A DNA stretch of 64,000 nucleotides from a virus: IMG/VR virus record IMGVR_UViG_3300032285_003360, positions 37,770-101,769 of that record. The stretch is one strand, 5' to 3'. Made by a program: the position numbers and the translations under genes. Shown here piece after piece: positions 20,699-56,931 of this stretch. The notes under the pieces were generated by a model. It was not told where the DNA came from, did not search any database, and saw only the letters and a list, made by a program, of their open reading frames with translations. Position 1 is the first letter of the stretch. Each line of letters begins with the position of its first letter.

Positions 20699-22211
20699 GG
20701 TTGTAAAAATTTTTTAAATAATCATATATGTTAGGGAACAATTCACAAAGTGAATCAGATTCTCTTTTAATCAATTCAATGCGATGTTCACAAAGTTGTT
20801 TATACTTCTCGTGAATTTTCCATTGACAGTTTTTATAAAAACCCATACCCCATAACCATTGGAACCAGTTAACTGCTCCGAAGATTCTGCCTCTAAACAT
20901 GTGTGCAGGTGGTTTATGTTCTAACACTTTAAACTTTTGAATTATCGTATCAGGTAAAAATGTTTTTTCATGAACGTCTCTCCAAAATTGTGTATCTCTT
21001 CTTTGACATAAATAGTAATGCGCAATAATAAAATCACGAATGTCAATCATCATATCGATGTTATCTCTGTTGATTGCATCAATAACTGGTTGACCATATT
21101 TTAATCCACTCTTTTCTAATTCAGTAACAAGTGTAGCCATAATACCTTGGAATGTTGAAATACCAGTTGATTCCATTGGTTCAGCAAATCCACTACTTAA
21201 TCCACACGCAACCACATTCTTAACAGCAACTCTTTCACGTGTTCCAATTCTCATTTTAATTTTCATTACCTCACCATTATATCCATCATGGAACTCTCTA
21301 AATTCTTTTTCAGCATCTTCATCACTGATATGGTTTGATGAATAAACGTAGCCACTTCCAATTCTACTATAGATTGGTGTCTTCCATAACCAACCGCTAT
21401 TCATCGTATATAAACTCGAATAAGGTGTTAATTCTTTTCTCTTATCTTTATATGGAATAGGTGCAACAACTGCTGTGTCGCAAAATAATGAATCTTTGAA
21501 TGATATGAATGGTTCACCCATTACCGCTTCAATTAATGCCGCTCTAAATCCTGAACAATCAATATAGATATCTGCACTATATTTTGATCTATCCATCATT
21601 TTTAATTCCTTAACAAAACCAAACGCATCTAACTTAACTTCTTTTAAATCAGCTTCAACAATCTTAACACCATTTGGTATTGCTACTTTATCTCTCAATA
21701 CGTCAGCAAATTTTCTTGCATCAAAGTTGTAACTATAAAAACTTTCTAACTTAGATAACTTTGGTGAATAAGAAATGTCTTCTTCAAAGTTTGGACAAAT
21801 ATTCATATCAGCCATCTTCGCTGTTAAATGAATGTCATTAATCTTTTTATGGTCGCCTGCGTATTCAGACACCAAGTATTCATGTAAGTTTAAATCATCT
21901 GTAATAAAGTGTCTACTTTCATTCTCAACAAGAACCATGTGTTCACCATCTTCAGACCAATTCATAAACTTACCACCATACTTGTATACCGCATCACATT
22001 CATTCATCCATTCACTTTCTTTTAAACCAAGGAACGACATAAAAGATTGTAAGCTCGCAGTTGAGCTCTCACCAACACCAATGGTTGGGATAAGTTTACT
22101 ATGTATCAAGGTAATGTCTACTTTACCTTTGAACATTTTTGACAATAATGATGCAGTCATCATACCAGCAGTTCCACCGCCTAAGATGACAATTTTTTTA
22201 ACGTCTAACAT
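20691..22211 (-). CDS. Flavin-dependent tryptophan halogenase-type enzyme
   Basis: The 506-residue protein has the FAD-binding GGGTAGMMTA (residues 11-20) and GVGESST (45-51). KYGGKFMNW includes Lys81 at the position of the catalytic lysine that relays hypohalous acid. The halogenase signature is SGWLWKTPIYSRIGSGYVYS, and the late motif is CGLSSGFAEPMESTGI. The WxWxIP signature is altered to W-L-W-K-T-P (residues 274-279). Such enzymes halogenate aromatic compounds using FADH2, oxygen and halide; related viral enzymes are known from cyanophages. A separate flavin reductase would be needed and none is seen here. Confidence 0.9.
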   Translation of the reverse strand: MLDVKKIVILGGGTAGMMTASLLSKMFKGKVDITLIHSKLIPTIGVGESSTASLQSFMSFLGLKESEWMNECDAVYKYGGKFMNWSEDGEHMVLVENESRHFITDDLNLHEYLVSEYAGDHKKINDIHLTAKMADMNICPNFEEDISYSPKLSKLESFYSYNFDARKFADVLRDKVAIPNGVKIVEADLKEVKLDAFGFVKELKMMDRSKYSADIYIDCSGFRAALIEAVMGEPFISFKDSLFCDTAVVAPIPYKDKRKELTPYSSLYTMNSGWLWKTPIYSRIGSGYVYSSNHISDEDAEKEFREFHDGYNGEVMKIKMRIGTRERVAVKNVVACGLSSGFAEPMESTGISTFQGIMATLVTELEKSGLKYGQPVIDAINRDNIDMMIDIRDFIIAHYYLCQRRDTQFWRDVHEKTFLPDTIIQKFKVLEHKPPAHMFRGRIFGAVNWFQWLWGMGFYKNCQWKIHEKYKQLCEHRIELIKRESDSLCELFPNIYDYLKNFYNRD

Positions 22212-25725: not shown

Positions 25726-26706
25726 TTAAATTGGTGACCATAATGGTGCAGCTGATGACAATGATCTTGGTGCATCCGAAATATTAACAATGTTGTCAGT
25801 ATCGTAATATATTTTATCACTATGCGCATTTTGACCTGTTGATGTATTATAACCACCTGCTAAATAACCATAAGCTTGGCCCATGGTTCCTGAATTTTCA
25901 CAGTTCTGTAATGTTTGGTTATAATAATTTAAAGTCCATGTTGCAATGTTATTTCTAAACTGATACATTTTTGTATCAGATGTGCTACCGTCTGTTGTTA
26001 AATAAAATTTACCTCTTTTGGAGTTTAACCCTTTTTCCAAATAACCTGCGCCACCACCCCATCCAAATGTTCTTGGTGTGTTTGTTGTTCCATATGTTGA
26101 CCACGATTCGGTTGCAAATGTCATGATATATGTATTTGAACTATCCCAACCATAACCGTAATCTCTGTCAAACCATGCCGCATGATAAGCTGATTGCATG
26201 ATACCTGAATTGGTTGTTGATGACCATGTATCGGTTGCAAACGTTAATATATCCATACCAGTGTTACCGTTACCGCAAGTATATGCTTTTACACCAAACG
26301 CAGCGCCAATACCATCATATCCAACACCTTGTTGTAACGAATTCGGTGAACCACTACTATAAGTTCTATTACCTATTGTTGTTAATGTTTCGGATGCGAA
26401 TACTAATTTGTTATTACCAACGGAGCTATCCTGTGTGTTTAACATCACATAACCTGCGGTATGTGCTGATGCCCATCCTCCATATTTTGTTGCTTGTGTT
26501 AAAGATACGCCTGATGTCCCCCAACTATCTGTTGGATATTTTAATGTTGTAATTGCGGTATTAATTGTTCCGCCAACATATCCGCCACCAATTAAACCTC
26601 TGATTAATATTAGACCATTTTCATAGGTATCATCAATTAAGGAGGTGATATCTCTACCACCTACTCTCAAGTTACCTGTGAAACTTAAATTGTTATTTAC
26701 TTGCAT
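25726..26706 (-). CDS. Kelch-like phage adhesin, paralogue A (326 aa)
   Basis: The start MQVNNNLSFTGNLRVGGRDI is a variant of the paralogues' N-terminus, followed by LILIRGLIGGGYVGG. Propeller-like repeats include TTLKYPTDSWGTSGVSLTQA and TFATDTWSSTTNSG, and the C-terminus ends IVNISDAPRSLSSAAPLWSP. It is the first adhesin after the giant fibre (3-base gap) and four bases before paralogue B. Variation concentrates in the middle repeats, as expected if the ends anchor the protein and the repeats contact ligands. Confidence 0.65.
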   Translation of the reverse strand: MQVNNNLSFTGNLRVGGRDITSLIDDTYENGLILIRGLIGGGYVGGTINTAITTLKYPTDSWGTSGVSLTQATKYGGWASAHTAGYVMLNTQDSSVGNNKLVFASETLTTIGNRTYSSGSPNSLQQGVGYDGIGAAFGVKAYTCGNGNTGMDILTFATDTWSSTTNSGIMQSAYHAAWFDRDYGYGWDSSNTYIMTFATESWSTYGTTNTPRTFGWGGGAGYLEKGLNSKRGKFYLTTDGSTSDTKMYQFRNNIATWTLNYYNQTLQNCENSGTMGQAYGYLAGGYNTSTGQNAHSDKIYYDTDNIVNISDAPRSLSSAAPLWSPI

Positions 26707-26709
26707 ATC

Positions 26710-29700
26710 TTATATGTCTAATTTACTCTTTAATTCAGATATAATCAAGTTCTGCTCGTTTATTTCTTGTTTCAATTCTTTGATTGCTTCAATGAATACT
26801 GCACTCAATCTACCATAAGAAACACTATCAACTTCACCGTCTTTATTTTTTAAAACAACTTCAGGAATGATTTCATTCATCTCTTCAGCAATAACACCTA
26901 TTTCTTTTAAATCATCTTCTTTTCTTACGTATGTTACACCTCGCATCTGAAGAACTTTATCCAAACCATATTTAACTATTTCAATATCTTTCTTATATCG
27001 TAATGATGAGTTTTCTGTGATAACACCTGAAACAACTAAGTTACCATCTTGGTCTAATGACATTTTAGCAGTGCTCCAGTTTGTGCTTCCATTTTTTGAT
27101 GTGTGGAAATACATTACGTGGTTTTCAGTTGCAGTTGCGGTTCCTCTCCAGTGTCCCGCATATAATCTTAAATCGTTACCATAAGTTCTAACCATACCAT
27201 CATATGTTCCTTGAACACCTAATTCTATCGATGGGTAATTACCACTACCATATACTGTTAATCCTACAGTTCCTGCAGAACCGCCACCGCTTGCTGCTGC
27301 AGTTAATGTTAAGGTCGAGAATGTTACACCATTAGTTGTATTCAAGTTTTGGTTAGCAGAATAACCGGCACCTTGCATTGCATATGATGTGTAGTTAGAT
27401 GAATCTAACACAGTTCTCCATGATGTCCATGTTCCTGAGTTTTTACCTCTAACAGCTAATTGACCTGTTCTGAAATCACCAAATATTTCATGATACCAAG
27501 ATGTGCTATAACCTGCAACATATAAACCACCATCTGTTTGTCCAAACAAAGGAACGTTAGCATTTACATAACCAATCGCATCTAATGTTGGTGGTGAACT
27601 TGCGTCCATAGCAGTTGATGAATAAGCCGCTGTAAAGTTTGATATTGAACCTGCACTTGTTGCGGATGTTGCGGTAGCGGCATTACCACTAATGCTAATA
27701 CCCCAAGTTCCCGATGCGCCACCACCTGTTAATGTTGGTGAATATGAGTTATAGTTACCTGCGTGTAAAACTACGTTGGTTAACCATGTCATAGTAGAAC
27801 CATTATATAATTTTAAACCTTCAGTGTAAACACCATTACCGTCTTTACTACCGATGTCAATGTATCTATTTGCGGTTGCACTATCATATCTAACTTTAAT
27901 TACTGGACCATTTGCGGGACCATCTAAAATTGTATATATTGTTTGGTTAGCATAACCATTTAATTGTGCAGCGTAACCATCTGTATTAACACCTGATAAA
28001 TTTAATGTTGCACTTGCTCTACCTAATGAAATAGATGTTGAACCTAAATAAAAAGATGAGTTTGCTAAGTAACTATTACTAATGGCACTACCATTCCACG
28101 TTCCACTTATAATTGTTCCAACTGTTAAATTACCATTAGACGCCAATGACATTCTATCATAGAATGTACCACCATCATTAAATGTCCAATATAATGTGCT
28201 TGAGTTGTTTGATGCACTACCGTTAGCGTATCTTAAATCAAACATTGCATTATTCGTTCCACCATTAGGATTGATTCTAAAACTCAACGCAGTATAAGCA
28301 TTAGATGTGGTTGCGTTGTTAACTATCGATAAGAATCTATTCCCATCACCCATATCACTATTAGCGGTAAAACCACTACTAACTGTTAATGAAACGGTTG
28401 TTCCTGATGTGGATCTACTCGCACCGCCACCTTGTGTAAATTTACCCGTTACAGATGTTGCACCACTAACTGATAATGTGCTACCATCATATGTTAAACC
28501 GCTGTTACCTTGTATTAAACCTGCAGTTCCTGTTGCTGTAATTACGTAATTCGCGGTGTTATTATTAATTGTTGCGGCACCAGATGTTCCTGATGAACCA
28601 TTAGAACCAGAAGAACCACTTGTTCCCGAAGAGCCTGAGCTTCCTGATGTTCCTGAACTTCCCGATGAACCTGATGAACCAGAAGTTCCTGAACTTCCCG
28701 ATGAACCTGATGAACCAGAAGTTCCTGAACTTCCCGATGAACCTGATGAACCCGATGTTCCGGAGCTACCACTAGTACCAGATGAGCCTGAACTACCCGA
28801 ACTACCTGACGTTCCTGAGCTTCCTGAAGAACCTGATGAACCCGAAGTTCCCGATGACCCGCTTGAACCAGAGCTACCGCTTGTTCCTGATGAACCGCTT
28901 GTCCCACTTGAGCCCGAACTACCCGATGAACCACTTGTACCTGAGGTTCCTGAACTACCACTAGTTCCCGATGAACCCGATGACCCACTTGTTCCAGAAC
29001 TACCACTTGAGCCCGAACTACCCGATGAACCACTTGTACCGGATGTTCCTGAGCTACCACTAGTTCCTGAAGAACCTGATGAACCCGATGACCCACTTGT
29101 TCCAGAACTACCACTTGAACCTGAAGAACCCGAAGTTCCTGAAGTTCCCGATGAGCCACTTGAACCTGATGTTCCTGAGCTACCTGAAGAGCCTGATGAA
29201 CCACTTGTACCAGAAGTTCCTGAAGAACCTGAGCTACCACTAGTTCCCGAAGAACCACTTGAACCACTACTTCCTGAACTACCAGATGTTCCACTTGTTC
29301 CTGAACTACCGCTTGTTCCGGTTGAACCTGAGCTACCGCTTGAGCCTGACGTTCCACTTGTTCCTGAACTACCTGATGATCCACTTGTTCCACTCGTTCC
29401 TGAAGAACCACTAGAACCCGAACTACCTGAAGTGCCACTTGTGCCAGAAGAACCACTTGTTCCGGTGCTTCCGCTTGAACCGGATGTTCCTGAACTACCA
29501 GATGAACCTGAAGAACCCGAAGTTCCACTTGTTCCTGAAGAACCCGAACTTCCTGATGTTCCACTAGTTCCTGATGAACCACTTGTTCCACTTGTACCAG
29601 ATGTTCCGTTTACGATAGGTAATGTTAAAATGTTACCATTTGAATCAAAACCTAATGTACCAATAGTTGTACCAGTAAATTTAGTTGCTGAATTATAATT

Positions 29701-32487
29701 CTGTAATGATAATTGACCTGTTTGTAAATCAATTCCTAAATGTTGCGCATCACTATTATTATTGTTACCTCTTAAAACTCTAAACTTATTTTGATAATTA
29801 TCAAGCATAGCACCTGATGTGTAACCACTAATTCCTGTTCCTTGTAATATTAATTGACCACCCTCACCGTTACCACCTCCAGTTGGAGGTCCGATAATTA
29901 ATGTGTTCTCAGTTGAACCTGTTAGACCATTTATTGATAAACTTCCTGTTACATATGCATTATTTGTTATTTTTAATGAACCTGTAACTTCAGTATTTGT
30001 TAAATGTCTTATGGTTGTTCCATCATCAACGGTATTTGAATCATTTAAATGGAATCCACTAACCATTTTTGGGATTCTATTTGTTGTTAAAGGTGTTTCA
30101 TTACCAAGATTGTTTGCTGTCTCAGGACCCGTAATTAAAATTGATGATGTAATAGGTGAACCTGATTGAAATTGGTGCACGAAAATCCATTCATTATTAA
30201 TAGAATCAAATAACAATGAGCCTGAAACTTGGGGTATAGAACCTGAATCAATGATTTCAATACCACCATATCTTAATATAGGTGCATTCGCATTTAATGT
30301 TAAAATATTATCACCAATTGTTAATTGTGATGATGTGATGTATTGAATTGAAGACGAACCTGCAACTATAAAGTTTTGTGAAACATATAATGAACCAGTT
30401 ACAATTGTATTTCCCGTAATAGTTAATGCGCCACCGCTATAAACTAAATTAGCTGATGCTGTTGCGGCATTTGTTGTCCCATCTGAAAGTAATATACGAC
30501 CGCTCGCTGCTGAATTAATTGTTGAGAATCCTGTTCCACTCGTTCCTGCTGTTCCTGAGCTACCTGAACTACCAGATGTTCCACTAGTTCCTGATGAACC
30601 GCTCGAACCGCTACTACCTGATGTTCCACTCGTTCCTGAACTACCACTTGTTCCACTACTACCCGAAGAACCTGAGCTTCCGGATGAACCACTTGTTCCG
30701 GATGTTCCTGAAGAACCAGAGCTACCTGATGTTCCTGAGCTTCCTGAAGAACCACTAGAACCTGAGCTACCGCTTGTTCCCGCTGTTCCACTTGTCCCTG
30801 ATGAACCACTTGAACCAGAACTTCCTGATGTCCCTGACGAACCACTGCTACCTGAGCTACCACTTGTTCCAGATGTTCCTGAACTTCCACTTGTTCCACT
30901 ACTACCTGAAGACCCACTAGAACCTGATGTTCCCGCAGTTCCACTTGTACCAGAAGAACCCGAGCTTCCGCTTGTTCCAGATGAACCTGATGATCCACTT
31001 GAACCTGACGTGCCACTCGTTCCTGAACTACCCGATGTTCCACTTGTTCCTGATGAACCTGAGCTTCCTGAAGTTCCCGATGTGCCACTTGTTCCTGATG
31101 AACCTGAGCTTCCTGAAGTTCCGCTTGTACCAGACGAACCTGAAGTTCCCGAACTTCCTGAAGAACCGCTTGTACCAGATGTTCCTGAAGAACCACTACT
31201 ACCTGAACTTCCTGATGAACCTGAACTACCTGATGTTCCGCTTGTACCAGAGCTACCACTTGTTCCACTTGTACCAGACGTTCCTGAAGTGCCCGATGTT
31301 CCTGATGAACCTGAACTACCACTTGTTCCACTTGAACCCGAACTTCCAGATGTTCCTGAAGTTCCCGATGAACCTGAACTTCCACTCGTGCCTGATGTTC
31401 CTGATGACCCTGAACTACCTGATGTTCCGCTTGTACCAGAGCTACCACTTGTTCCAGACGTTCCTGAGGTTCCGCTTGAACCTGAAGAACCACTACTACC
31501 TGATGTGCCACTTGTTCCTGAAGAACCTGAACTACCTGATGTTCCACTCGTTCCAGAACTACCGCTTGTGCCTGAAGTTCCCGATGAACCCGAGCTACCT
31601 GATGTACCACTGGTTCCACTTGAACCAGAGCTACCACTTGTTCCACTTGTGCCAGATGAACCACTAGAACCTGAAGAACCTGAGCTACCACTTGTGCCGG
31701 AAGTTCCTGAACTACCACTTGAACCAGATGTTCCTGCGGTTCCGGACGTTCCGCTTGTAGCGGCATTATATGATGTTCCATTGATAACAACATCACCTGT
31801 TACATATAATGAACCTGTAACGTATGTGTCATCATTTATTCTTAAACCGACGCCGTCATAAACTTGTGCGTTTGCTGCGCCGTCAGAAATCTTATTTAAT
31901 TGTAAACCTGTAACTCCACTTGCAGGTATTCCATATAAACCTGCTCCACTACCTGTAAATGAACCTGATATTTGTGCCGCAAGAAATGGTTGAGATATTC
32001 CACCAAATCTTAAATAACTATTTTCCGGGTCTCTTCTAAAAACAATAGCAGTTGCACCCGTTCCTATTTGAAATTCGTTTGCGATAATTTTTTTCAAATT
32101 ACCGTCAATATCTAAAACCTCTATATCACCATCAATGGTTCTGATTATTTTAGTTGCACCAAAATGAATTGCTGAACCTGTTTCTAAAAATAAATCATTC
32201 CATTTAAATTCTGTGGAACCTAAATTATAATCACCATCTAAAGCAGGTATTAATGAACCGCTGAATGTTTGGTCATCCGCAAATACGTTACTTCCTGTTG
32301 TTGCAAATGATTCACGGTCTCTTCCACCTAATAATTTTGAATTTTGGGCTAATGAAGCGGAAATTGCATTTGAGGTAGTTCCGCTGATGGTGGCGTTAAT
32401 AACACCATCAACCGTTAAATCACCCGCAATATGACCATTTCCTTGGACTTCTAACGAACCCGATATACTGGCATCAAATATTTTCAT
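26710..32487 (-). CDS. Giant tail fibre with collagen-like blocks and S74 chaperone
   Basis: This is 1925 residues. Residues 1-240 are fibre-type beta repeats (LEVQGNGHIAGDLTVDGVIN; ATTGSNVFADDQTFSGSLIP, shared with the 15792 fibre). Residues 244-651 are a Gly-(Ser/Thr)-Ser triplet block, and 652-960 are further beta repeats. Residues 961-1303 form a second triplet block, and 1304-1820 are beta repeats with several GNLTV/GTWNG motifs. Residues ~1823-1925 are a peptidase_S74 intramolecular chaperone (SSLRYKKDIE, IGVIAEEMNEIIPEVV, a final coiled coil), which trimerises the fibre and then cleaves itself off. It follows the heptosyltransferase-fusion gene by 55 bases. Confidence 0.93.
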   Translation of the reverse strand: MKIFDASISGSLEVQGNGHIAGDLTVDGVINATISGTTSNAISASLAQNSKLLGGRDRESFATTGSNVFADDQTFSGSLIPALDGDYNLGSTEFKWNDLFLETGSAIHFGATKIIRTIDGDIEVLDIDGNLKKIIANEFQIGTGATAIVFRRDPENSYLRFGGISQPFLAAQISGSFTGSGAGLYGIPASGVTGLQLNKISDGAANAQVYDGVGLRINDDTYVTGSLYVTGDVVINGTSYNAATSGTSGTAGTSGSSGSSGTSGTSGSSGSSGSSGSSGTSGTSGSSGSSGTSGTSGSSGSSGTSGTSGSSGTSGTSGSSGSSGTSGTSGSSGSSGSSGTSGTSGTSGSSGTSGTSGSSGSSGTSGTSGSSGSSGTSGTSGSSGSSGTSGSSGSSGTSGTSGTSGTSGTSGSSGTSGTSGSSGSSGSSGSSGSSGTSGTSGSSGSSGTSGSSGTSGTSGSSGSSGTSGTSGTSGSSGSSGTSGTSGSSGTSGTSGSSGSSGSSGTSGSSGSSGTSGTAGTSGSSGSSGSSGTSGSSGTSGTSGSSGSSGSSGTSGSSGSSGSSGTSGTAGTSGSSGSSGSSGSSGTSGSSGSSGTSGTSGSSGSSGSSGSSGTSGSSGTSGTSGSSGSSGSSGTSGTSGSSGSSGTAGTSGTGFSTINSAASGRILLSDGTTNAATASANLVYSGGALTITGNTIVTGSLYVSQNFIVAGSSSIQYITSSQLTIGDNILTLNANAPILRYGGIEIIDSGSIPQVSGSLLFDSINNEWIFVHQFQSGSPITSSILITGPETANNLGNETPLTTNRIPKMVSGFHLNDSNTVDDGTTIRHLTNTEVTGSLKITNNAYVTGSLSINGLTGSTENTLIIGPPTGGGNGEGGQLILQGTGISGYTSGAMLDNYQNKFRVLRGNNNNSDAQHLGIDLQTGQLSLQNYNSATKFTGTTIGTLGFDSNGNILTLPIVNGTSGTSGTSGSSGTSGTSGSSGSSGTSGTSGSSGSSGSSGTSGSSGSTGTSGSSGTSGTSGSSGSSGSSGTSGTSGSSGSSGTSGTSGSSGSSGSTGTSGSSGTSGTSGSSGSSGSSGSSGTSGSSGSSGTSGTSGSSGSSGSSGTSGSSGSSGTSGTSGSSGSSGSSGTSGSSGSSGSSGTSGSSGTSGTSGSSGSSGSSGSSGTSGSSGSSGTSGSSGTSGTSGSSGSSGSSGTSGSSGTSGSSGSSGSSGTSGSSGSSGSSGTSGSSGSSGSSGTSGSSGTSGSSGSSGSSGTSGSSGSSGSSGTSGSSGSSGSSGTSGSSGSSGTSGSSGSNGSSGTSGAATINNNTANYVITATGTAGLIQGNSGLTYDGSTLSVSGATSVTGKFTQGGGASRSTSGTTVSLTVSSGFTANSDMGDGNRFLSIVNNATTSNAYTALSFRINPNGGTNNAMFDLRYANGSASNNSSTLYWTFNDGGTFYDRMSLASNGNLTVGTIISGTWNGSAISNSYLANSSFYLGSTSISLGRASATLNLSGVNTDGYAAQLNGYANQTIYTILDGPANGPVIKVRYDSATANRYIDIGSKDGNGVYTEGLKLYNGSTMTWLTNVVLHAGNYNSYSPTLTGGGASGTWGISISGNAATATSATSAGSISNFTAAYSSTAMDASSPPTLDAIGYVNANVPLFGQTDGGLYVAGYSTSWYHEIFGDFRTGQLAVRGKNSGTWTSWRTVLDSSNYTSYAMQGAGYSANQNLNTTNGVTFSTLTLTAAASGGGSAGTVGLTVYGSGNYPSIELGVQGTYDGMVRTYGNDLRLYAGHWRGTATATENHVMYFHTSKNGSTNWSTAKMSLDQDGNLVVSGVITENSSLRYKKDIEIVKYGLDKVLQMRGVTYVRKEDDLKEIGVIAEEMNEIIPEVVLKNKDGEVDSVSYGRLSAVFIEAIKELKQEINEQNLIISELKSKLDI
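28579..29607 (-). repeat. Gly-Ser/Thr-Ser triplet block 2 inside the giant fibre
   Basis: About 114 consecutive Gly-X-Y triplets where X is Ser or Thr and Y is almost always Ser, with rare N or T exceptions. Codons are thoroughly mixed (tcc, tca, tct, agt, agc; ggt, gga), so the DNA repeat is degenerate while the protein repeat is nearly perfect. This points to selection at protein level. It creates long spurious open frames on both strands. Confidence 0.95.
30535..31758 (-). repeat. Gly-Ser/Thr-Ser triplet block 1 inside the giant fibre
   Basis: About 136 Gly-X-Y triplets of the same type, with occasional Ala in the X position (G-T-A-G). It begins right after SYNAA and ends before GFSTINSAA. 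Gly at every third residue is the collagen rule, but proline is absent, so stability would have to come from another source such as glycosylation or trimer clamping by the flanking beta domains. Confidence 0.95.
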
Positions 32488-32542
32488 CTAAATAATATTA
32501 TACTTAGATAAATACTTGATTATTCGTATCTAAAACGGAAAA

Positions 32543-35275
32543 TTAGAACAATAACTTATCTATTTCGTTTATCACGTCTTGAGAGGTGATATTTTTAGAA
32601 CATTCAAACTGTCTGTCTGTATTTTTATGGTCAGGACACCAATTCCAATCACCCGCATCAAAATCGTGTCTATTCCAACAACTGTTACAAACATTTTTGT
32701 TGATAATTCTATTAACACCTATTATTGGTTCGGTATAATCATCACTAAATCCTGATATCATTATTGTAGGTGTTTCACATCCCCAAGCAACCCAACTTAA
32801 ACCACTACTAATCCCAATAAACAATTCAGATTCTTGCAATACTTTCATGATATCAATTAATGAACCATTTGGTTGTTTTGTTGCCCCTTTTGGATAGAAA
32901 TTACCCATATACCCATCCTCTTCTTTTGATAAGATTCTTACTTCATATCCTTTTGAAATTAGATAATCCGTAATATCTTGCCAACCTGTTGGGTTGTTCC
33001 AATACTTAGCTTGTGCTGTTGAATGTAAACCAATTGTCACCAACTTCTTTTTTTGAACATTGAACTTTTGTAACTTAGGTTTAAGTTCTTCATACTCTAA
33101 ACCAAGTATATCGGAACTATATTTTGTTAACGGCTCAGTTTTAGGGTCCGTTCTATGATATTCATTATTAACAACTCTTACACCATCTTCTGTTTTATAG
33201 AACATCCCTAATCTATATAAAGCGTAAAGACTGTTAACCGAAGAACCTGGTTCAACAAATTCAATTTCTTTGTATTGTTTTTTGAACAACTCATTTTGGA
33301 ATGTTGAACAAATCACTTTACAATTTCTTTGTTTTCTAAATTTCTCAACATATGGGATGAAAGCTAACGTATCCCCTAAAGACTTACTTTCGAAACAAAT
33401 CAAAACTCGTTGTTTTTCTAAATTCATTTCGTATTGAAATCTATAATTGTTGTCAATACCTCTAACATCAATTAACCAATCCACATAATATTTTATTGAA
33501 CACTTAGCCCAATGGTTTGATTTTAAATCAAGTTCATATTCCACTTTGTTGTTCGCTTTGTTTATAAATTGAACATGGTAATTAGAATCAAAGTCATTTA
33601 ATATCTCAACAAATGGCCCATCAACAAAATTGATATTAACCTTTGTTTTTGATTGGTCCTTATTCTCGTAAACAAGTTTATTTTTTCTTCTAAATTCATT
33701 TACATCTTCAGATAACAATTCATTATAGACCTCAACACCTTTGTGGTAAATTGAGACATTTTGATTTTGTTCGTAGTAACCAATTTTTTCTAAATGGTAT
33801 TGTCCTTTTTGAATTGTATAGAATTTTCGGTGATTTCCGTAATTAACCTCAACCAAGTAATCTTTGTCTGCGGGTTTATCGGTAAAACCAGATATGAAAT
33901 GAATATATAATTGATTTGAATTATCAACCGCCAAATATATTTGGAATCTACCACCGTTTCTATCTAAATGGTCTCTATTCCAAACAGCGTGAACATTAAG
34001 CTCGTTATCGTTAGCAATGTATTTGCTTGTGAAGATATTGTTCGTCACATCTTTAAGATACTTTAAAAACACTCTTTCCAATTGCCAACCATGTGGTCTG
34101 TTTGTGAAATATTCTTTTTTTGAATTTACCTTGCTGATTAACTCAAGAGCAACATCGGTTTTAACACTAAAGATAAATGTTGCACAAAATTCAGCGAAGT
34201 CTTTATTAACAGATGATTTTTCAGCGTATTCATAAATAACAGCATCGTGGCGATGACTATATTCCAAAAATGCTTGTTTATATTGCATTGGGTCTGGTAA
34301 GTTATCATATTCCAAAAAGTGAATATATTTTTTACCAAGATACTTCGCATAGTTAAACGCATTTCTCATTGTTTCCCAAATAGCGTAGTCATGATGGAAA
34401 CCCATTTTATTAATAACTTTAGCGCCACCTAAAGATGTCCATCTATCGCTCGCTACGCCATACTCTTCAAAATCTTTTTCAAGTAATATATCGTTGTTAC
34501 CATCATAGATATAATGGTCAACTAACTTTTGAATTTCGGGTTTAACGGGATAGTGCCCACATAATAAGATTGGAATATTAAAATTTCTAAGTCTTTCAAT
34601 TAAACCAAGTAAAGTGTTTTCTTTTTCGGGTGTGTCCAACCAACAATCAACAATAAAGATATCATCTTCAAATTCATTGTTTGACGATTTTTTAGGGAAG
34701 TAATGTTTCAAGAATGTGTCAACAGAAATAACATTCATAAGTTCGTTTCTATTATCACAATAGAAATTATACGTCAATTCCTCGCCGTTGTATTTGAATG
34801 GTGTGTTATTTCCTTTTCTAATAATACCCAAACCATAATCAGTATCAACGGTATTAATTTCTAAATCCGTTCTTTCGATTCTAAATTTAGCAATAGCTTT
34901 CCACACATCACCAGTCCATTCACCATCACACTCTTCTTGGCGTTGCATTACTTCACTAAATGGTAAACAGTCGTGACAAACAATTACACCATTATCAGAT
35001 AAATGATTCAATGAATTCTCAATGTCTCTTATTACTTGATAATCATGATGTAAACCATCAATAAAAATAATGTCATATTTGAAATCCTTATCTAATTGTT
35101 CAAAGAATTCATCTGATGTGATTGGGTAGTTACAATTACCTGCGGGGTCAACACCATCCTTATGCTCAACGTTGATAATGTTTAAATTATCATTAGGGTT
35201 TCTAACACCAATCTCTAAGTATGATTTAAAATTATTGTATTCAATAAATTTATTTATCGCGTCGTATCTTCTCAT
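32543..35275 (-). CDS. Methyltransferase - GT-A - autotransporter heptosyltransferase fusion
   Basis: This has 910 residues and three parts. Residues ~1-165 are a class I methyltransferase (SYLEIGVRNPNDNL; YDIIFIDGLHHDYQVIRDIE; GVIVCHDCLPF). Residues ~205-440 resemble a GT-A domain (IHFLEYDNLPDP). Residues ~640-910 match autotransporter O-heptosyltransferases of the TibC/BAHT type: ICFESKSLGDTLAFIPYVEK, IGLHSTAQAKYWN, LFIGISSGLSWVAWGCETP, then a metal finger with Cys863, Cys866, Cys880 and Cys892 (NWCPDHKN, RQFECSKNIT). TibC enzymes place heptose on Ser of bacterial adhesin repeats. Its neighbour is the Ser/Thr-rich giant fibre; it overlaps the preceding fusion gene by 4 nt. Confidence 0.85.
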   Translation of the reverse strand: MRRYDAINKFIEYNNFKSYLEIGVRNPNDNLNIINVEHKDGVDPAGNCNYPITSDEFFEQLDKDFKYDIIFIDGLHHDYQVIRDIENSLNHLSDNGVIVCHDCLPFSEVMQRQEECDGEWTGDVWKAIAKFRIERTDLEINTVDTDYGLGIIRKGNNTPFKYNGEELTYNFYCDNRNELMNVISVDTFLKHYFPKKSSNNEFEDDIFIVDCWLDTPEKENTLLGLIERLRNFNIPILLCGHYPVKPEIQKLVDHYIYDGNNDILLEKDFEEYGVASDRWTSLGGAKVINKMGFHHDYAIWETMRNAFNYAKYLGKKYIHFLEYDNLPDPMQYKQAFLEYSHRHDAVIYEYAEKSSVNKDFAEFCATFIFSVKTDVALELISKVNSKKEYFTNRPHGWQLERVFLKYLKDVTNNIFTSKYIANDNELNVHAVWNRDHLDRNGGRFQIYLAVDNSNQLYIHFISGFTDKPADKDYLVEVNYGNHRKFYTIQKGQYHLEKIGYYEQNQNVSIYHKGVEVYNELLSEDVNEFRRKNKLVYENKDQSKTKVNINFVDGPFVEILNDFDSNYHVQFINKANNKVEYELDLKSNHWAKCSIKYYVDWLIDVRGIDNNYRFQYEMNLEKQRVLICFESKSLGDTLAFIPYVEKFRKQRNCKVICSTFQNELFKKQYKEIEFVEPGSSVNSLYALYRLGMFYKTEDGVRVVNNEYHRTDPKTEPLTKYSSDILGLEYEELKPKLQKFNVQKKKLVTIGLHSTAQAKYWNNPTGWQDITDYLISKGYEVRILSKEEDGYMGNFYPKGATKQPNGSLIDIMKVLQESELFIGISSGLSWVAWGCETPTIMISGFSDDYTEPIIGVNRIINKNVCNSCWNRHDFDAGDWNWCPDHKNTDRQFECSKNITSQDVINEIDKLLF

Positions 35276-37986
35276 TTTGTAAAATATATCATTTGTAATT
35301 CGTCATTTCCACCCATAAACAATATGTAGGAAACAAAACCTAATCTTTGTAATCTGTTTATTAAATTTTCTCTTAATTCAACATTATGACCTAAATGTCC
35401 GTGATGATATTCCATTGCGATGTTTCTTACCTTTAAAAGATTATCATCCGATATTCCCGCAAAGGCATGTTGCTCTGCACCTTCGATATCCACTTTAAGG
35501 AAATCTATCTTATCAATCAAACCTGTTTCAAACAAATAATCTAACGTGTATGTTCTAACAGGATATTTTACACCATCACCCGCACCAAGTAAAGTGGAAC
35601 CACCTAAATGGTCGGTTTGGTATAATGTAAATTCACCAATTGTATCGGCCATTGCTGCGTTGAACAATATTGAACGTGGGTCAGCGTTTAATGATAATAA
35701 TTTGAAATATCTTCTATCAGGTTCAAACGAGATAACCTTACTTGCACCTTGACTGTAGACCCATCTATTGAAAATACCAACATTACCACCTAAGTCGACA
35801 ACAATATCACCTTCATTGATTACTCTTTCTCTATTCTTGTAATAATCCAATAGATTGAATATCTCATGGTAGATTGCTCTAAACCAACCGAACTTAGTTG
35901 CAACTTCCATTGTTCCGCCTTCGTAACCTTTGATGTCACCTAAGTTTTCTAATTTGTAAATGTCAGTATAAAAATATTCTGATTGATAGAATGAGTTGTC
36001 TCTTTTCATTTTAATAAACTCAATCATCTTATCTGATATCTCGGCGTTTTTATTACCGTGAAAATATATGATATCGGATTTATCTTTTGGAATGTATTGA
36101 TAACCAAAAATTCTATTGAAATTCTGTGGGCCATCTTCATTCCAAAACTTTAAAAATTGATGCATTGTTTTATCGATGAAACCTTCATCACCATCATAAG
36201 AAGATGTGTCAAAGTTTGATAATGGTAAGTGATTAGTAAAACCATGGTTCCATCTAATCGCATTATCTATACCTTCATCATTCCATAAGAAATATCGTTT
36301 ATAGTCTTCAGGACTACCTTGCATCATTGTGTCATAATATCCCAATATACCATCAAAAAAACCTCTTGAACCTTGATTGTAAATGTAGAAACAGATGTGC
36401 ATGTATGGTTGTTGTTTTTCAACTCCCCATCTTTTAGCTAATTCTTCATTAAATAATTGTGAACCACCTTCATATGTTCCAAAGAATTCTTCTTGAACGT
36501 GAATATCCGATAATGGGTAACGACCAACTTGTTTGAAATATTTTGTAACAGTATCAATATTGTAATTAACGACTACATCTCCGTCAACCCAAATGTAATA
36601 ATCAAAATCTTCGTTTAATGATTCTAAACAAGCCCATTGTTTCCAATACCATTTATCGTGTTCAGAAATCTTTGGTGGGTTAATAGTTCTTTTAATAACA
36701 TTAGGATAATCAAATGGAACTTCACAATCAACACCGTAAACAATAACTTTTTGACTACTGAATTCCAATAAAGATTGAACCATTTTTTCAATCACAGGCA
36801 TGTATTGTAAGTTACCGGTAGTAACAAATGCATATGATGGAAATATCTTATTCAACTTCTTACTTGCAAGCTCGGCCACATGTTCCCAATTAAAATCTTC
36901 ATGTATTTGTTTAGCCTCGGCTCTTGATTTGATGAGTATTGCTGTGTGATAATCATAAGCTTGACGCATTTGTGTTTTCAAATCATCCCAATTAGGTTCA
37001 CAATAATCACCTGGCCAATCTTTATGTTCAACATTCGCGGGTCTTAATTCTGATATACCTACAGGGATACCTTTACCACTAGCAAATTCAAGTTGTCCAC
37101 CCCAATTAGAATATATTGATGGTGTTCCACAAGCCATAGCTTCAATCAATGGTAAGTTCCATCCTTCGCTACGAGCACAAGAAACAAATACATCACCTTC
37201 TTGTAGATATTTGACGTATTCATCTCTTGTTGGGAATTTAATGAAATTAATTTTGGTATCATCAATTCCGTGGAATTCAATTCGTTCTTTTGTTGACTTT
37301 AAACCGTCATTTGGATATGGATTTTCAACTGATGCGATTAATTCCACATCATCAATATCTTTAAATGTTTCGGAAAAGGCTCTTAATATTTCTGTGGTTC
37401 CCTTTCTATAATCCCATCTACCAAAATGTAAAAATCTAAACTTATCTTTTTTTGAGAATTTCTCAATAGGTTTAAACGTCTCAACGTCAACACCTTCAGG
37501 AATGATTGTTATTTTGTGTTCAGGATAACCCTGCGCAACTAAACAATCATATTGCCATTGGGTTGGCACCCACATTTCATCAAATGTTAATAATCTATTA
37601 AAGAAATGTTCAGGGAATAATGTTGATTCCCAAACACAATAAGCAATTTTATAACCATCGTAATTGTCATAATAATAGAAGTTATCCATCTCCATTAAAA
37701 CAATGTGAACGTCAGGTTTAAAGCTACCATCATATCCGTAAATCGGATAGTCAGTTCTACTACCATCAGCATTGAATAGAGTTTGTTGAATCAACATATC
37801 CTTCATCTCATCGGTAATGTAAGGTTCGCCGTCATGTGGTGTTGGGTTATAACCTTTCCAACTATCACCAATAGTGAAGTTTCTTACTTTAACAGTGTGT
37901 AATTTGTTTAATGCACAAAAAAATGATTTACTATGGTTTGCGTAACCGGTAGTTCCAATAAAGGGTGCGTGAGCTAAGATTTTCAT
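35272..37986 (-). CDS. GT4 - GT-A - FkbM methyltransferase fusion
   Basis: The protein has 904 residues. Residues 1-375 form a GT-B enzyme (MKILAHAPFIGTTGYANHSK start; CARSEGWNLPLIEAMACGTP donor motif). Residues ~378-640 are a GT-A-like domain (YAFVTTGNLQYMPVIEKMVQ; IWVDGDVVVNY with the DxD). Residues ~700-904 are an FkbM-family methyltransferase (VVDLGGNVGIFNRW; VISFEPDRRYFKLL; FLKVDIEGAEQHAF). One polypeptide could add two sugars and methylate the product in the cytoplasm. The domain order is the mirror image of the next gene (methyltransferase, GT-A, GT-B). Coupled by ATGA to it. Confidence 0.88.
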   Translation of the reverse strand: MKILAHAPFIGTTGYANHSKSFFCALNKLHTVKVRNFTIGDSWKGYNPTPHDGEPYITDEMKDMLIQQTLFNADGSRTDYPIYGYDGSFKPDVHIVLMEMDNFYYYDNYDGYKIAYCVWESTLFPEHFFNRLLTFDEMWVPTQWQYDCLVAQGYPEHKITIIPEGVDVETFKPIEKFSKKDKFRFLHFGRWDYRKGTTEILRAFSETFKDIDDVELIASVENPYPNDGLKSTKERIEFHGIDDTKINFIKFPTRDEYVKYLQEGDVFVSCARSEGWNLPLIEAMACGTPSIYSNWGGQLEFASGKGIPVGISELRPANVEHKDWPGDYCEPNWDDLKTQMRQAYDYHTAILIKSRAEAKQIHEDFNWEHVAELASKKLNKIFPSYAFVTTGNLQYMPVIEKMVQSLLEFSSQKVIVYGVDCEVPFDYPNVIKRTINPPKISEHDKWYWKQWACLESLNEDFDYYIWVDGDVVVNYNIDTVTKYFKQVGRYPLSDIHVQEEFFGTYEGGSQLFNEELAKRWGVEKQQPYMHICFYIYNQGSRGFFDGILGYYDTMMQGSPEDYKRYFLWNDEGIDNAIRWNHGFTNHLPLSNFDTSSYDGDEGFIDKTMHQFLKFWNEDGPQNFNRIFGYQYIPKDKSDIIYFHGNKNAEISDKMIEFIKMKRDNSFYQSEYFYTDIYKLENLGDIKGYEGGTMEVATKFGWFRAIYHEIFNLLDYYKNRERVINEGDIVVDLGGNVGIFNRWVYSQGASKVISFEPDRRYFKLLSLNADPRSILFNAAMADTIGEFTLYQTDHLGGSTLLGAGDGVKYPVRTYTLDYLFETGLIDKIDFLKVDIEGAEQHAFAGISDDNLLKVRNIAMEYHHGHLGHNVELRENLINRLQRLGFVSYILFMGGNDELQMIYFTK

Positions 37987-38021: not shown

Positions 38022-39098
38022 TTAAATGATGGTTTTATTTTTATCTAAAAATTCGTGCATATTATGGAATACCATCTTCTCACCTCTAATTTTATTTAGA
38101 CTAATTAAAAATTGTGTGTGCTCAGGGTGAGATGTGTCCCATACCTTTCTAATCAAATATTCACTTTCACTAAAGCTACCCCAGTTCGCAATCTTACTGA
38201 AAAATATAACACCTCGTTTACCAAAAATATCTCTTATTAAATTAACAAACTCACTCATTTCAAAGTAGTTACCCGATTGAACGACAAATGATGTTCGTAT
38301 AAATCTTAATGTGGGTATTGTTTTAATAAAGTTTAAATTGTTAATCAGGTTTTCCCAATTACCACCAAGCCTTGTAACATTTTCATATGTTTCTTTTGAT
38401 GCCGCATCTATACTGATTTCACAACTTTTAACATAAGGATGTATATTGGACATGCTATCCCACATCTCTTTATTCCACATACTTGCGTTTGTGTGTAGAT
38501 GTATCTTTTTTAACTTGGGGTATTTGTTTGAATCAAATGTTCTTAAGAAATTTCTAAATGAAACGGAAACGAATGGGTCGCCACTACCAGTAATGTAAAG
38601 CGCGGTAATATCCTTTGCATAAGCATCTTCTATTTCACTAATTGTTGATTTAATTTTTTTAATCTCATCGCCACTTGCTGTTATAACATCAATTCTACAT
38701 GATGGACATTTGTAATTACATGTCGCATCAAAAGCGAATTGGACAACACTTGGTCCAACCGTCATTTCACCAGTTTCATAATCATAGTCCTCAATTAATT
38801 CATGAAAATCTTCTTTTAATACCAACGGACCTTTCCTATCGTTTAAATCACCATCTAATAAAGCCGATAGATACGGACAATAGTTTTTGTCACAATATTT
38901 GTAACTACCATCTAATACCGACTTTCTTATTTCTTTGGATTCGGTTGAATTCCAAATTTGTTCAATTGAATGGTCTTCGTGTTTAATTACTTTTGGCATC
39001 CACGTGGGACAACACATATATGAAGATGTTTTGTGTATTTCAATGGTTTTAAATGGTGTCAAACAAACATAATCATTTAAATTAACATCATTTCTCAT
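38022..39098 (-). CDS. Radical-SAM protein with N-terminal twitch domain (type A)
   Basis: The 358-residue protein has the 4Fe-4S/SAM core motif C-x3-C-x2-C at Cys127, Cys131 and Cys134 (TCNYKCPSC), and ITGSGDP where GGEP normally binds SAM. Ahead of the core is a SPASM/twitch-like domain with Cys12, Cys29, Cys30, Cys69 and Cys74 around EQIWNSTESKEIRKSV, probably an auxiliary cluster. The placement is inverted relative to ordinary SPASM proteins, and matches the N-terminal twitch radical-SAM group. Substrate unknown. Its closest relative in the window is the 50425 gene; both sit near an SGNH hydrolase gene. Overlaps the sulfotransferase by 4 nt. Confidence 0.85.
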   Translation of the reverse strand: MRNDVNLNDYVCLTPFKTIEIHKTSSYMCCPTWMPKVIKHEDHSIEQIWNSTESKEIRKSVLDGSYKYCDKNYCPYLSALLDGDLNDRKGPLVLKEDFHELIEDYDYETGEMTVGPSVVQFAFDATCNYKCPSCRIDVITASGDEIKKIKSTISEIEDAYAKDITALYITGSGDPFVSVSFRNFLRTFDSNKYPKLKKIHLHTNASMWNKEMWDSMSNIHPYVKSCEISIDAASKETYENVTRLGGNWENLINNLNFIKTIPTLRFIRTSFVVQSGNYFEMSEFVNLIRDIFGKRGVIFFSKIANWGSFSESEYLIRKVWDTSHPEHTQFLISLNKIRGEKMVFHNMHEFLDKNKTII

Positions 39099-39691
39099 AT
39101 TAAAACCTTTGTGTTTTTTTCGCCACGATATTTTTTACTAATATCTAAATAATCTTTAAAATATCGCTCATTATATGGACACTCAATTTCGTTTAAAAAT
39201 TCAATCATGTTTTCTTTATTATAAAATAAATCTTCATAATAGAAAATTTTTGACTGCTTAATTTCAGCGAGTTGGTGCATTTCGTTTTTAACATCTTGCA
39301 AAACCTTCAAACTCAATTCTAATTTTTGGGAATCCTTTTTTTCATCATACATATATTGTCCTTCCCACTTGTTACTAATTAAAGCAGATGAAAAACTTTC
39401 AGATTGTTTCTCAAGGTCTTTTCTACTTAAAAAAACTATTTTATCAAAATCATTAAAAACAATATCATAAAACTCATATCTTGTTATATTATTATATTCA
39501 CTTGGTATTTGTTTATATAATTGTTTAATAAAACAATCGTTATGTTTTAATACATCGCTATATGGAATTGATTCGTGTTTTAAAATGTTAAATGGTTCCA
39601 AATAAACACTATATTTTGGTTTAACCTTAAAAAAATATTTACCTAAGGATGTTGAACCCGTTCTTGGTTCAGCAATTAACATTATTCTCAT
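39095..39691 (-). CDS. Sulfotransferase-like protein
   Basis: RIMLIAEPRTGSTSLGKYF (residues 2-20) is the 5'-phosphosulfate-binding loop of PAPS-dependent sulfotransferases. KIVFLSRKDLEKQSESFSSA (from ~84) matches the 3'-phosphate-binding strand with its R/S residues, and FYYEDLFYNKENMIEFL is the usual C-terminal strand-helix. The 198 residues are at the short end of the family. It would move sulfate from PAPS to a hydroxyl, probably of a glycan or tyrosine. It is in the same transcription direction as an APS-kinase-like gene (46681) that could make the donor. Confidence 0.75.
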   Translation of the reverse strand: MRIMLIAEPRTGSTSLGKYFFKVKPKYSVYLEPFNILKHESIPYSDVLKHNDCFIKQLYKQIPSEYNNITRYEFYDIVFNDFDKIVFLSRKDLEKQSESFSSALISNKWEGQYMYDEKKDSQKLELSLKVLQDVKNEMHQLAEIKQSKIFYYEDLFYNKENMIEFLNEIECPYNERYFKDYLDISKKYRGEKNTKVLI

Positions 39692-40455
39692 ATAATCGTT
39701 TTTTTAGTTTGTGGTTCTAACCCTAACATACGAATAAATTCTTCATAAATCAAATGTTGTCTATAAGTTGTGTAATGATCCAAATCCCTTGCTTCTAATG
39801 AACCATCCTTACTCCAATTAATATCATCGTTTCTTAGAAGATAATAATTACACCCTATTTCCGATGCCAAATGTTTTATTGCGGAAATAAATGCAGTATC
39901 GATAAAAGATTGTTGGTCGTTGTTAACTAACGAATCTTCAATCAATGTTCCATATTGAACTTTCCATTCATCTTGATATTCATTGACTTTACAAATTGTT
40001 GGTTTACCGTTAATTATGAATTCGTATCTATAGTAATTTGGGAGGTAATGGAATATGTTTTTAATCTTTAACTCTTTATAATAACCAAGTAATAAACGAT
40101 AATGTGACATCACTCCAGTCCCGCCAATGGATAAGTTCCAAAACTTACCTCCGATTTGGTTGTTTACTTTATATGACCACACGTTTTCAAGATGGTGACC
40201 GACACCAAATGTATATGAACAACCTAAAAACACATTACCCTCATCAACCAAATTAAAATCATCAGGTGACCTGAAACCTTCATTGTTTAATGTGTATTTT
40301 ATTGGGTTTTCTAAATAATATTTTAAACTTTCGTTGTTGGGATATCTCTTTAAATTGGATATGAAATTCTCCTCTTCGTTTTGTGTAATCCAATTGTATG
40401 TTGTGTTAGGTGAATATTTCTCCCAACCGCACCTGTCTTTATAAATGGGAATCAT
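39688..40455 (-). CDS. SGNH/GDSL-family hydrolase
   Basis: FLGCSYTFGVGHHLENVW provides the nucleophile motif G-C-S-x-T-x-G (serine near residue 78). NLSIGGTGV gives block-II Gly, and ARDLDHYTTYRQH gives a C-terminal D-x2-H pair. The preceding YTLNNEGFRSPDDF is typical of phage SGNH proteins that begin with an NExGFR segment. These enzymes usually add or remove acyl esters on sugars or proteins. At 255 residues it is a stand-alone domain, with 4-nt overlaps at both ends. Confidence 0.75.
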   Translation of the reverse strand: MIPIYKDRCGWEKYSPNTTYNWITQNEEENFISNLKRYPNNESLKYYLENPIKYTLNNEGFRSPDDFNLVDEGNVFLGCSYTFGVGHHLENVWSYKVNNQIGGKFWNLSIGGTGVMSHYRLLLGYYKELKIKNIFHYLPNYYRYEFIINGKPTICKVNEYQDEWKVQYGTLIEDSLVNNDQQSFIDTAFISAIKHLASEIGCNYYLLRNDDINWSKDGSLEARDLDHYTTYRQHLIYEEFIRMLGLEPQTKKTII

Positions 40456-41000
40456 ATAAAACTTTTCTTTGTGATGGGTTTTACATTCTCATTGACAATT
40501 GCGATAATCATTGATTTCCTTTCCCCAGATGTTATTATTTCAACTTCATGTGGTGTTTCAGGTGTTATAGCTAAAAAACTACCAATTTCTTTACTCATTG
40601 GTATTGGTTGGTCGTTAACATAAGATAAGAACTGGCCACCTTCGTAATCTGTTTGATTTGATAATTGAACAATACACACACAAAATCTGTTATGTTCAAA
40701 TGGGTCGGAATCAATATGTTTACTGATAAAATTACCATCATTATATTTGTATATTTCAAATGGTAAAACATCGACATCTATTTTATACCCAAGTTCATTA
40801 AATGATTCGTTAATTTTCTTAAACAATAAATCATCTTTTGTTATTGAAGCATTTGTTACAAAACTATTTCGTTTTTTTAAATTATACCCAACTTCATTGT
40901 TATTTCCCGCTTTAAAATAAGACTGCACGAATTGTCCACCCAATCCTCTTAGATATTGACATTCGGATTCGTCAAATAGTTTTTTCTCAAATAAAATCAT
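40452..41000 (-). CDS. 2-oxoglutarate/Fe(II) oxygenase, prolyl-4-hydroxylase-like
   Basis: The 182 residues contain the full facial triad and co-substrate arginine: H-x-D at His95/Asp97 (FISKHIDSDP), His151 (TPHEVEIITSGER) and Arg161. YEGGQFLSY is the conserved strand between them. It would hydroxylate a protein or free amino acid residue using oxygen and 2-oxoglutarate. Unlike the two diverged oxygenase-like genes at 44545 and 45018, all catalytic positions are intact here. It overlaps the SGNH gene by 4 nt. Confidence 0.85.
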   Translation of the reverse strand: MILFEKKLFDESECQYLRGLGGQFVQSYFKAGNNNEVGYNLKKRNSFVTNASITKDDLLFKKINESFNELGYKIDVDVLPFEIYKYNDGNFISKHIDSDPFEHNRFCVCIVQLSNQTDYEGGQFLSYVNDQPIPMSKEIGSFLAITPETPHEVEIITSGERKSMIIAIVNENVKPITKKSFI

Positions 41001-54329: not shown

Positions 54330-54332
54330 TGT

Positions 54333-56277: not shown

Positions 56278-56278
56278 A

Positions 56279-56929: not shown

Positions 56930-56931
56930 GC

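What the first reader, a model, noticed from the sequence alone, without database searches (positions are those of the whole stretch)
26710..35275. Candidate self-glycosylating fibre: a TibC-like O-heptosyltransferase directly before a fibre with ~250 Gly-Ser/Thr-Ser triplets
The gene read immediately before the giant fibre carries an autotransporter O-heptosyltransferase domain with the four-cysteine metal finger (Cys863/866/880/892). Known members glycosylate serine in repetitive bacterial adhesins. The fibre offers two blocks, residues 244-651 and 961-1303, in which Ser or Thr fills two of every three positions. The pairing suggests a phage that coats its own fibre with sugar, and many further GTs in the same run could extend the glycan.
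Basis: partly seen in the sequence, partly recalled or inferred. Interest (0 to 1): 0.93.

Follow-up and report, generated by a model that had tools for sequence, protein, structure and literature searches.

The report
Phage enzyme that sugar-coats its fibre
A large phage carries, directly before its tail-fibre gene, a relative of the bacterial TibC enzyme that attaches sugar to serines, and comparison of hundreds of phages and bacteria suggests that this branch of enzymes works on the Gly-Ser-Ser/Gly-Thr-Ser repeats that fill the fibre, a pairing I found no report of.

Summary
The 910-aa gene before the fibre ends in a complete TibC-type domain (TIGR04414, 272 bits against a cut-off of 200; TibC PDB match E 4e-50; model fits 4RAP at TM 0.82). 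The catalytic Asp and four finger cysteines are present. The fibre has 250 Gly-X-Y triplets, with 493 of 500 X/Y residues Ser or Thr.

The pairing is not a one-off. Phage TibC-like enzymes and some bacterial ones form one clade (support 100), separate from TibC-type enzymes. All 22 genes I found beside GSS/GTS-repeat proteins lie inside it; all 13 beside strand-loop-strand autotransporters lie outside it. In bacteria the neighbour is usually a small secreted protein or lipoprotein with GTS/GSS repeats, 12 of 16 against 0 of 11 for canonical enzymes. Among phage records of at least 50 kb chosen only for GSS/GTS repeats, 18 of 31 encode the enzyme; of random ones, 0 of 18.

Best reading: a protein O-glycosyltransferase whose acceptor is the Gly-(Ser/Thr)-Ser tract. 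Heptose is not established. The arginine that reads adenine in TibC is Ile here and lost in most phage copies, though some relatives encode an HldE-like kinase/adenylyltransferase pair. No biochemistry has been done.

The parts
32543..35275 (-). Fusion enzyme, 910 aa: methyltransferase-like N-terminus, GT-A-like middle domain, TibC-type C-terminal domain
32546..33655 (-). TibC-type glycosyltransferase domain (residues 541-910)
   Evidence: TIGR04414 272 bits; PDB 4rap/4rb4 E 3.6e-50; model TM(target) 0.82 to 4rap; Asp635, Thr753, Lys757, Trp828 = TibC D110, T226, K230, W305; Ile809 in place of R286
32600..32689 (-). Four-cysteine metal finger, Cys863/866/880/892 (TibC Cys339/342/358/370)
   Evidence: function of the finger in TibC from PMC4358343
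33668..34663 (-). Middle domain (about residues 205-536): GT-A-like fold followed by a beta-sandwich; exists elsewhere as a separate gene of about 325 aa near the enzyme
   Evidence: AlphaFold pLDDT 87; Foldseek to GT-A enzymes GlcAT-P, LH3, COLGALT1 at E 1e-5 to 1e-4, low TM; standalone copies; no sequence match in PDB
34676..35275 (-). N-terminal methyltransferase-like region (residues 1-200), absent from about 705-aa homologues
   Evidence: PF13578 38.6 bits; low model confidence
26710..32487 (-). Collagen-like tail-fibre protein, 1925 aa
   Evidence: PF01391 and PF13884; PHROG tail-fibre families
30538..31752 (-). Proposed acceptor tract 1: 135 Gly-(Ser/Thr)-Ser triplets (residues 246-650)
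28573..29607 (-). Proposed acceptor tract 2: 115 triplets (residues 961-1305)
26851..27009 (-). Peptidase_S74 intramolecular chaperone (residues 1827-1879)
35272..37986 (-). GT4-FkbM fusion, 904 aa, overlapping the enzyme gene by 4 nt; conserved in this place in relatives
38022..41000 (-). Upstream genes of the same run: radical SAM (38022-39098), two unknown (39095-39691, 39688-40455), 2OG-Fe(II) oxygenase (40452-41000), 4-nt overlaps
25726..26706 (-). 326-aa protein of unknown function, 3 nt after the fibre

Best explanation
The C-terminal domain of the 910-aa protein is a catalytically intact TibC-type protein O-glycosyltransferase. It belongs to a sister clade of the known autotransporter heptosyltransferases whose acceptors are Gly-(Ser/Thr)-Ser collagen-like tracts rather than strand-loop-strand beta-helices. 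It is made just before the fibre from the same run of genes. Inferred steps: it transfers a sugar (heptose or a related sugar) from a nucleotide donor to Ser/Thr of the two tracts before or during fibre assembly. The fused GT-A-like and methyltransferase domains, and perhaps the neighbouring GT4-FkbM protein, may extend or cap the sugar. A dense sugar coat would stiffen and protect a proline-free collagen-like shaft and may tune adsorption. Shown: enzyme family and fold, conservation of catalytic residues and finger, the tracts, and recurrent genomic pairing. Inferred: activity, acceptor sites, sugar, and role.
For: Family and fold. In 211 phage copies the catalytic Asp is 211/211, K230 equivalent 210/211, W305 equivalent 210/211, each finger Cys at least 209/211. 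Adjacency: among 123 non-redundant phage loci, 81 hold a collagen-like gene and in 23 it is immediately 3' on the same strand, against 3.2 expected for a random other gene of the same loci. Collagen-like genes make up 20.5% of genes within 0.5 kb 3' of the enzyme, falling to 0.7% beyond 8 kb. Genome level: 18 of 31 records of 50 kb or more chosen only for GSS/GTS tracts encode the enzyme, against 0 of 18 random records of that size (Fisher p 2.7e-5); 14 of 19 enzyme-bearing records, mostly picked for lacking an adjacent tract, have one elsewhere. Bacteria: close relatives of the phage enzymes sit beside small signal-peptide or lipoprotein GTS/GSS-repeat proteins in Methylobacter, Methylomicrobium, Polaromonas and gammaproteobacterial MAGs, whereas canonical TibC-type enzymes in the same orders sit beside strand-loop-strand proteins or neither. 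Tree: one clade (support 100, branch 0.74) holds all phage copies and all 22 GXS-linked rows; all 13 SLS-linked rows lie outside. The X/Y make-up of phage and bacterial tracts is nearly the same.
Against: No biochemical or mass-spectrometric data. The window's own 101.8-kb record is a fragment and shows no heptose-pathway gene. R286 is replaced by Ile. 13 of 31 GSS/GTS phage records lack a detected enzyme (fragments, or the tract works unmodified). Several relatives, e.g. L017-L021, have the enzyme with no tract found in the record or locus. Adjacency within one phage clade is partly shared descent. Host-recognition regions collect both fibres and glycosyltransferases, which could raise co-occurrence.
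Confidence: 0.76

Rival explanations
1. The enzyme modifies something else, such as host surface glycan, lipid or another virion protein. It lies next to the fibre only because host-range genes and glycosyltransferases gather in one variable region.
For: The window is rich in other glycosyltransferases. Phage glycosyltransferases in fibre regions have been read as host-surface modifiers (PMC7029224). Some relatives lack a tract in the record.
Against: TIGR04414 enzymes are protein O-glycosyltransferases. The same clade in bacteria pairs with small GTS/GSS-repeat secreted proteins, with no phage fibre region involved. Enrichment peaks at the immediate 3' neighbour.
Confidence: 0.14
2. The enzyme adds a sugar to the fibre or a relative, but outside the triplet tracts, for example on the beta-rich regions between them, in a strand-loop-strand-like way.
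For: Characterised TibC/AAH acceptors are beta-helix loops (PMC4358343). The fibre has about 300- and 500-residue non-repeat regions.
Against: Masking the repeats leaves fibres that often no longer cluster with each other while the tract persists next to the enzyme. The bacterial partners share only the tract.
Confidence: 0.06
3. The domain is a non-catalytic remnant or scaffold.
For: Loss of the adenine-contacting Arg in most phage copies.
Against: Catalytic Asp, Lys, Trp and all four Cys are kept in nearly every one of 211 divergent copies.
Confidence: 0.04

Closest known systems
TibC / AAH bacterial autotransporter heptosyltransferases (BAHT, TIGR04414)
   Same: Same fold with N-terminal barrel, catalytic Asp/Thr/Lys/Trp, four-Cys iron finger; gene next to a Ser/Thr-rich repetitive surface protein
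   Different: Adenine-contact Arg286 is Ile; partner is a collagen-like GSS/GTS fibre, not a strand-loop-strand autotransporter; fused to two further domains; encoded by a phage; separate clade
Mycobacteriophage virion glycosylation (Freeman et al. 2023, known here only through PMC12619734)
   Same: Phage-encoded decoration of virion proteins
   Different: Glycans reported on capsid and tail-tube C-termini; no TibC-type enzyme or collagen-like tract is mentioned there
Collagen-like phage tail fibres (PF01391, PHROG tail-fibre families)
   Same: G-X-Y tracts plus S74 chaperone
   Different: Almost proline-free; X and Y nearly all Ser/Thr; paired with a protein glycosyltransferase
Glycosylated collagen-like surface proteins such as Bacillus BclA (recalled, not searched here)
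   Same: O-glycans on Thr of collagen-like triplets
   Different: GPT triplets and other glycosyltransferase families

Membership tests
TIGR04414 / BAHT | Score above the curated TIGR04414 cut-off | tested here: met
   272 vs 200 bits
TIGR04414 / BAHT | TibC fold closer than ordinary GT9 heptosyltransferases | tested here: met
   4rap TM(target) 0.82, E 4e-32; best WaaC chain 0.50, E 4.5e-8
TIGR04414 / BAHT | Catalytic base Asp110 and donor residues Thr226, Lys230, Trp305 | tested here: met
   Asp635, Thr753, Lys757, Trp828
TIGR04414 / BAHT | Arg286 contacting adenine of ADP-heptose | tested here: not met
   Ile809; Arg in 25/211 phage and 85/99 bacterial copies
TIGR04414 / BAHT | Four-cysteine iron finger | tested here: met
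   Cys863/866/880/892; metal not testable
TIGR04414 / BAHT | Beta-hairpin thumb | tested here: inconclusive
   Model has two short strands at 693-696 and 699-702; position against the TibC thumb not superposed
TIGR04414 / BAHT | Neighbouring strand-loop-strand autotransporter as substrate | tested here: not met
   Neighbour is a GSS/GTS collagen-like fibre; 0 of 76 clade rows have an SLS neighbour
TIGR04414 / BAHT | Dodecamer assembly | not testable with these tools
   needs protein
TIGR04414 / BAHT | Transfer of heptose from ADP-heptose to Ser | not testable with these tools
   needs assay
Collagen-like tail fibre | G-X-Y tract above the Pfam cut-off with C-terminal chaperone | tested here: met
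   PF01391 328.9 bits, PF13884 42.7 bits
LPS heptosyltransferase (GT9: WaaC, WaaF, WaaQ) | Score above the equivalog cut-offs | tested here: not met
   12-27 bits vs cut-offs of 134.6-467 bits

The most novel reading that the evidence does not exclude
There is a second, unrecognised acceptor class of TibC-type enzymes, shared by large phages and free-living bacteria. These enzymes read Gly-(Ser/Thr)-Ser collagen-like tracts and use a nucleotide sugar other than TibC's ADP-D,D-heptose, so that a dense sugar coat replaces proline in stiffening the phage fibre.
Probability: 0.35. Interest if true: 0.9.

Novelty: new variant of a known kind. Interest (0 to 1): 0.79.

Why it matters
GSS/GTS tracts are common in large environmental phages but have no assigned biochemistry. 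If they are sugar acceptors, virion glycosylation is widespread in jumbo phages, fibre adsorption and antibody or receptor contacts must be reconsidered, and a compact enzyme-plus-repeat pair becomes a tool for writing dense O-glycans on a designed repeat. The bacterial pairs give a small, phage-free test system, and Microcystis phage Mel-JY01 is a named isolate that carries both parts.

Tried and rejected
Ordinary GT9 enzyme: rejected. Chance adjacency: rejected by distance decay, genome-level sampling and bacterial recurrence. Antisense ORFs as genes: rejected, they mirror the repeat. Heptose pathway in the window's own record: not found; the nearby epimerase (11570-12568) fits GalE-like models better than heptose epimerase and no equivalog. 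The fibre N-terminus as a probe for repeat-free homologues found only three near copies, so the planned with/without comparison could not be made. The terminase control shows no collagen genes in 758 kb but comes from one phage lineage, so I rely more on the random-record control. No sequence match for the middle domain in PDB; Foldseek gives only a generic GT-A assignment. Paper searches found nothing on TibC-type enzymes in phages; the library lacks most subscription papers.

Full report
WHAT IS THERE. The window is bases 37770-101769 of a 101,769-base IMG/VR phage record, an incomplete genome. On the minus strand a run of closely packed genes leads into the fibre: 2OG-Fe(II) oxygenase (40452-41000), two unknown genes, radical SAM protein (38022-39098), a GT4-FkbM fusion (35272-37986), the 910-aa enzyme (32543-35275), a 55-nt spacer, the 1925-aa fibre (26710-32487) and a 326-aa unknown protein 3 nt after it. 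Several neighbours overlap by 4 nt. No intrinsic-terminator-like site lies between enzyme and fibre.

THE ENZYME. Residues 541-910 match TIGR04414, the autotransporter strand-loop-strand O-heptosyltransferase family, at 272 bits (cut-off 200), while LPS heptosyltransferase models give 12-27 bits. The best PDB match by sequence is TibC, and the AlphaFold model matches TibC over about 380 residues with TM(target) about 0.82; the best WaaC chain by E-value gives 4.5e-8 and 0.50. From the TibC paper (PMC4358343), D110 is the catalytic base, T226, K230 and W305 hold the donor, R286 contacts adenine, and four cysteines hold the iron finger. All but R286 are present here. Across 211 phage copies the base is 211/211 and each finger cysteine at least 209/211, but R286 is kept in only 25; among 99 bacterial copies it is kept in 85 (p about 4e-38 without correction for kinship). 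This argues that the domain is active and that its donor may differ.

The middle of the protein (about 205-536) is a confident model (pLDDT 87) of GT-A type plus a beta-sandwich. Foldseek hits are generic GT-A enzymes, among them the human collagen glycosyltransferases LH3 and COLGALT1, at E 1e-5 to 1e-4 but low TM, so I draw no closer conclusion. It occurs as a separate gene near the enzyme in other phages. The first 200 residues carry a methyltransferase match and are absent from many homologues of about 705 aa.

THE FIBRE. Tracts at 246-650 and 961-1305 hold 250 triplets: 138 GSS, 104 GTS, 8 others, no proline, 493 of 500 X/Y positions Ser or Thr. Pfam Collagen and a C-terminal S74 chaperone are well above cut-off.

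IS THE PAIRING REAL? One scan of IMG/VR gave 317 contigs with relatives, the best 79 loci kept; two more scans gave 45 and 80 loci. In 123 loci left after removing near copies (85% identity), 81 contain a collagen-like gene; it is the immediate same-strand 3' neighbour in 23, where a random other gene of those loci would score 3.2. The share of collagen-like genes falls from 20.5% within 0.5 kb 3' to 0.7% beyond 8 kb. After masking the repeats, several adjacent fibres no longer cluster with the others, so the tract persists while the rest changes.

A blind test in the other direction: a pattern for 15 Gly-(Ser/Thr)-(Ser/Thr) triplets drew phage loci without regard to the enzyme. In the short loci few enzymes showed, but in the full records of 50 kb or more 18 of 31 encode it over the cut-off. 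Records drawn by an arbitrary 15-mer gave 0 of 18 at that size and 0 of 50 overall (p 2.7e-5). Of 19 enzyme-bearing records, mostly chosen for lacking an adjacent tract, 14 have one elsewhere.

BACTERIA REPEAT THE PATTERN. The nearest bacterial relatives sit beside small proteins with a signal peptide or lipobox and GTS/GSS tracts: Methylobacter (L335, L336), Methylomicrobium (L337), Polaromonas (L334), gammaproteobacterial MAGs (L346, L351, L352, L353). Pfam calls four such partners tested Collagen; three pass the cut-off and L352 is just under it (26.9 against 27.2). Within one order (that of Methylobacter), 6 of 8 phage-type enzymes have such a neighbour and 0 of 5 canonical TibC-type ones do; canonical ones have strand-loop-strand neighbours instead (L496, L498). 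Adding the class search and two further orders gives 12 of 16 against 0 of 11 by my count (a stricter 11 of 14 gives p about 1e-4). Orientation differs among genera, so the pairing survives rearrangement; the three Methylobacter-like cases (L335/L494, L336/L501, L504) are close kin and not independent.

TREE. A 104-row tree places all phage copies and the bacterial GXS-linked ones on one side of a long branch (support 100, length 0.74). All 22 rows with a GXS neighbour within 2 kb are on that side; all 13 rows with an SLS neighbour are on the other. TibC itself counts as one of the 13, from its known partner. The root is not inferred and it is a quick tree. The label changes at least 5 times among bacterial rows on starred branches, so the link was kept or gained more than once.

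DONOR. In one phage lineage the standalone 382-aa enzyme is followed directly by two genes best matched by the two halves of HldE, the heptose-1-phosphate adenylyltransferase (100.7 bits) and heptose-7-phosphate kinase (117 bits) models, both below the equivalog cut-offs. The same pair occurs in two genomes with the window's gene order (records of L014 and L037), and a full-length kinase-like gene in a 735-kb phage. So a heptose-like donor is plausible, but with R286 lost I do not claim ADP-heptose.

KNOWN AND NEW. Only three phage genomes (four records) in 50,697 annotated phage records match the TibC-type domain; in Mel-JY01 it is annotated as FkbM methyltransferase, and minus-strand 'hypothetical' genes are annotated over the GSS/GTS tract. 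Paper searches found no account of it. Virion glycosylation as such is known in mycobacteriophages (cited in PMC12619734). I rate this a new variant of a known kind: same enzyme fold and chemistry class, a new acceptor class and a new setting. It passes the family model but misses two features of the characterised members (R286, SLS partner), so I call it a sister clade and not a TibC-type heptosyltransferase.

LIMITS. Everything about activity, site, sugar and role is inference. Gene calls are mechanical. Adjacency within phage clades is partly inherited. The random-record control does not match phage type or habitat.

Noticed in passing
L065:11098-12229 (also G001:C1:53355-54474, G004:C1:131784-132915, G013:C1:81789-82514 for the kinase): Split HldE-like adenylyltransferase and kinase genes encoded by large phages, in L065 directly after the TibC-type enzyme gene.
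   Followed up: partly
window 20691-22211: Tryptophan-halogenase-like protein (373.6 bits) in a phage, close to the glycosylation genes.
   Followed up: no
window 40452-41000 and 45018-45479: Two 2OG-Fe(II) oxygenases in the same gene run; possible hydroxylation of virion or other proteins.
   Followed up: no
window 38022-39098 and 50425-58317: Six proteins with radical SAM matches (one with SPASM; some below cut-off), plus a carbamoyltransferase (47269-48930).
   Followed up: no
window 58310-61155: Two adjacent proteins that fuse a GT7 galactosyltransferase-like domain to a LamG-like domain.
   Followed up: no
window 41162-43024: 620-aa protein ending in a Hint/intein-like domain (below cut-offs).
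   Followed up: no
window 1738-2877: Thymidylate synthase of 379 aa, about 110 aa longer than the Pfam model, matched in separate stretches: possible insertion.
   Followed up: no
window 9038-9466: 142-aa ORF with a partial match to the T4 major capsid protein Gp23 (42.8 bits), away from any head gene seen here.
   Followed up: no
PP395634.1 739-2298 (L002): Annotated minus-strand 'hypothetical protein' of Microcystis phage Mel-JY01 lies over a GSS/GTS tract on the other strand: likely misannotation.
   Followed up: partly
L346:5805-7009, L351:5914-7076, L353:6533-6910: Gammaproteobacterial lipobox proteins with GSS/GTS tracts, some in tandem, often with acidic (D/E-rich) tails.
   Followed up: partly
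L331 (CAIWBA010000291.1): Contig in a Bacteroidetes MAG carries a phage-type 924-aa fusion enzyme, so it is probably a phage contig or prophage.
   Followed up: no
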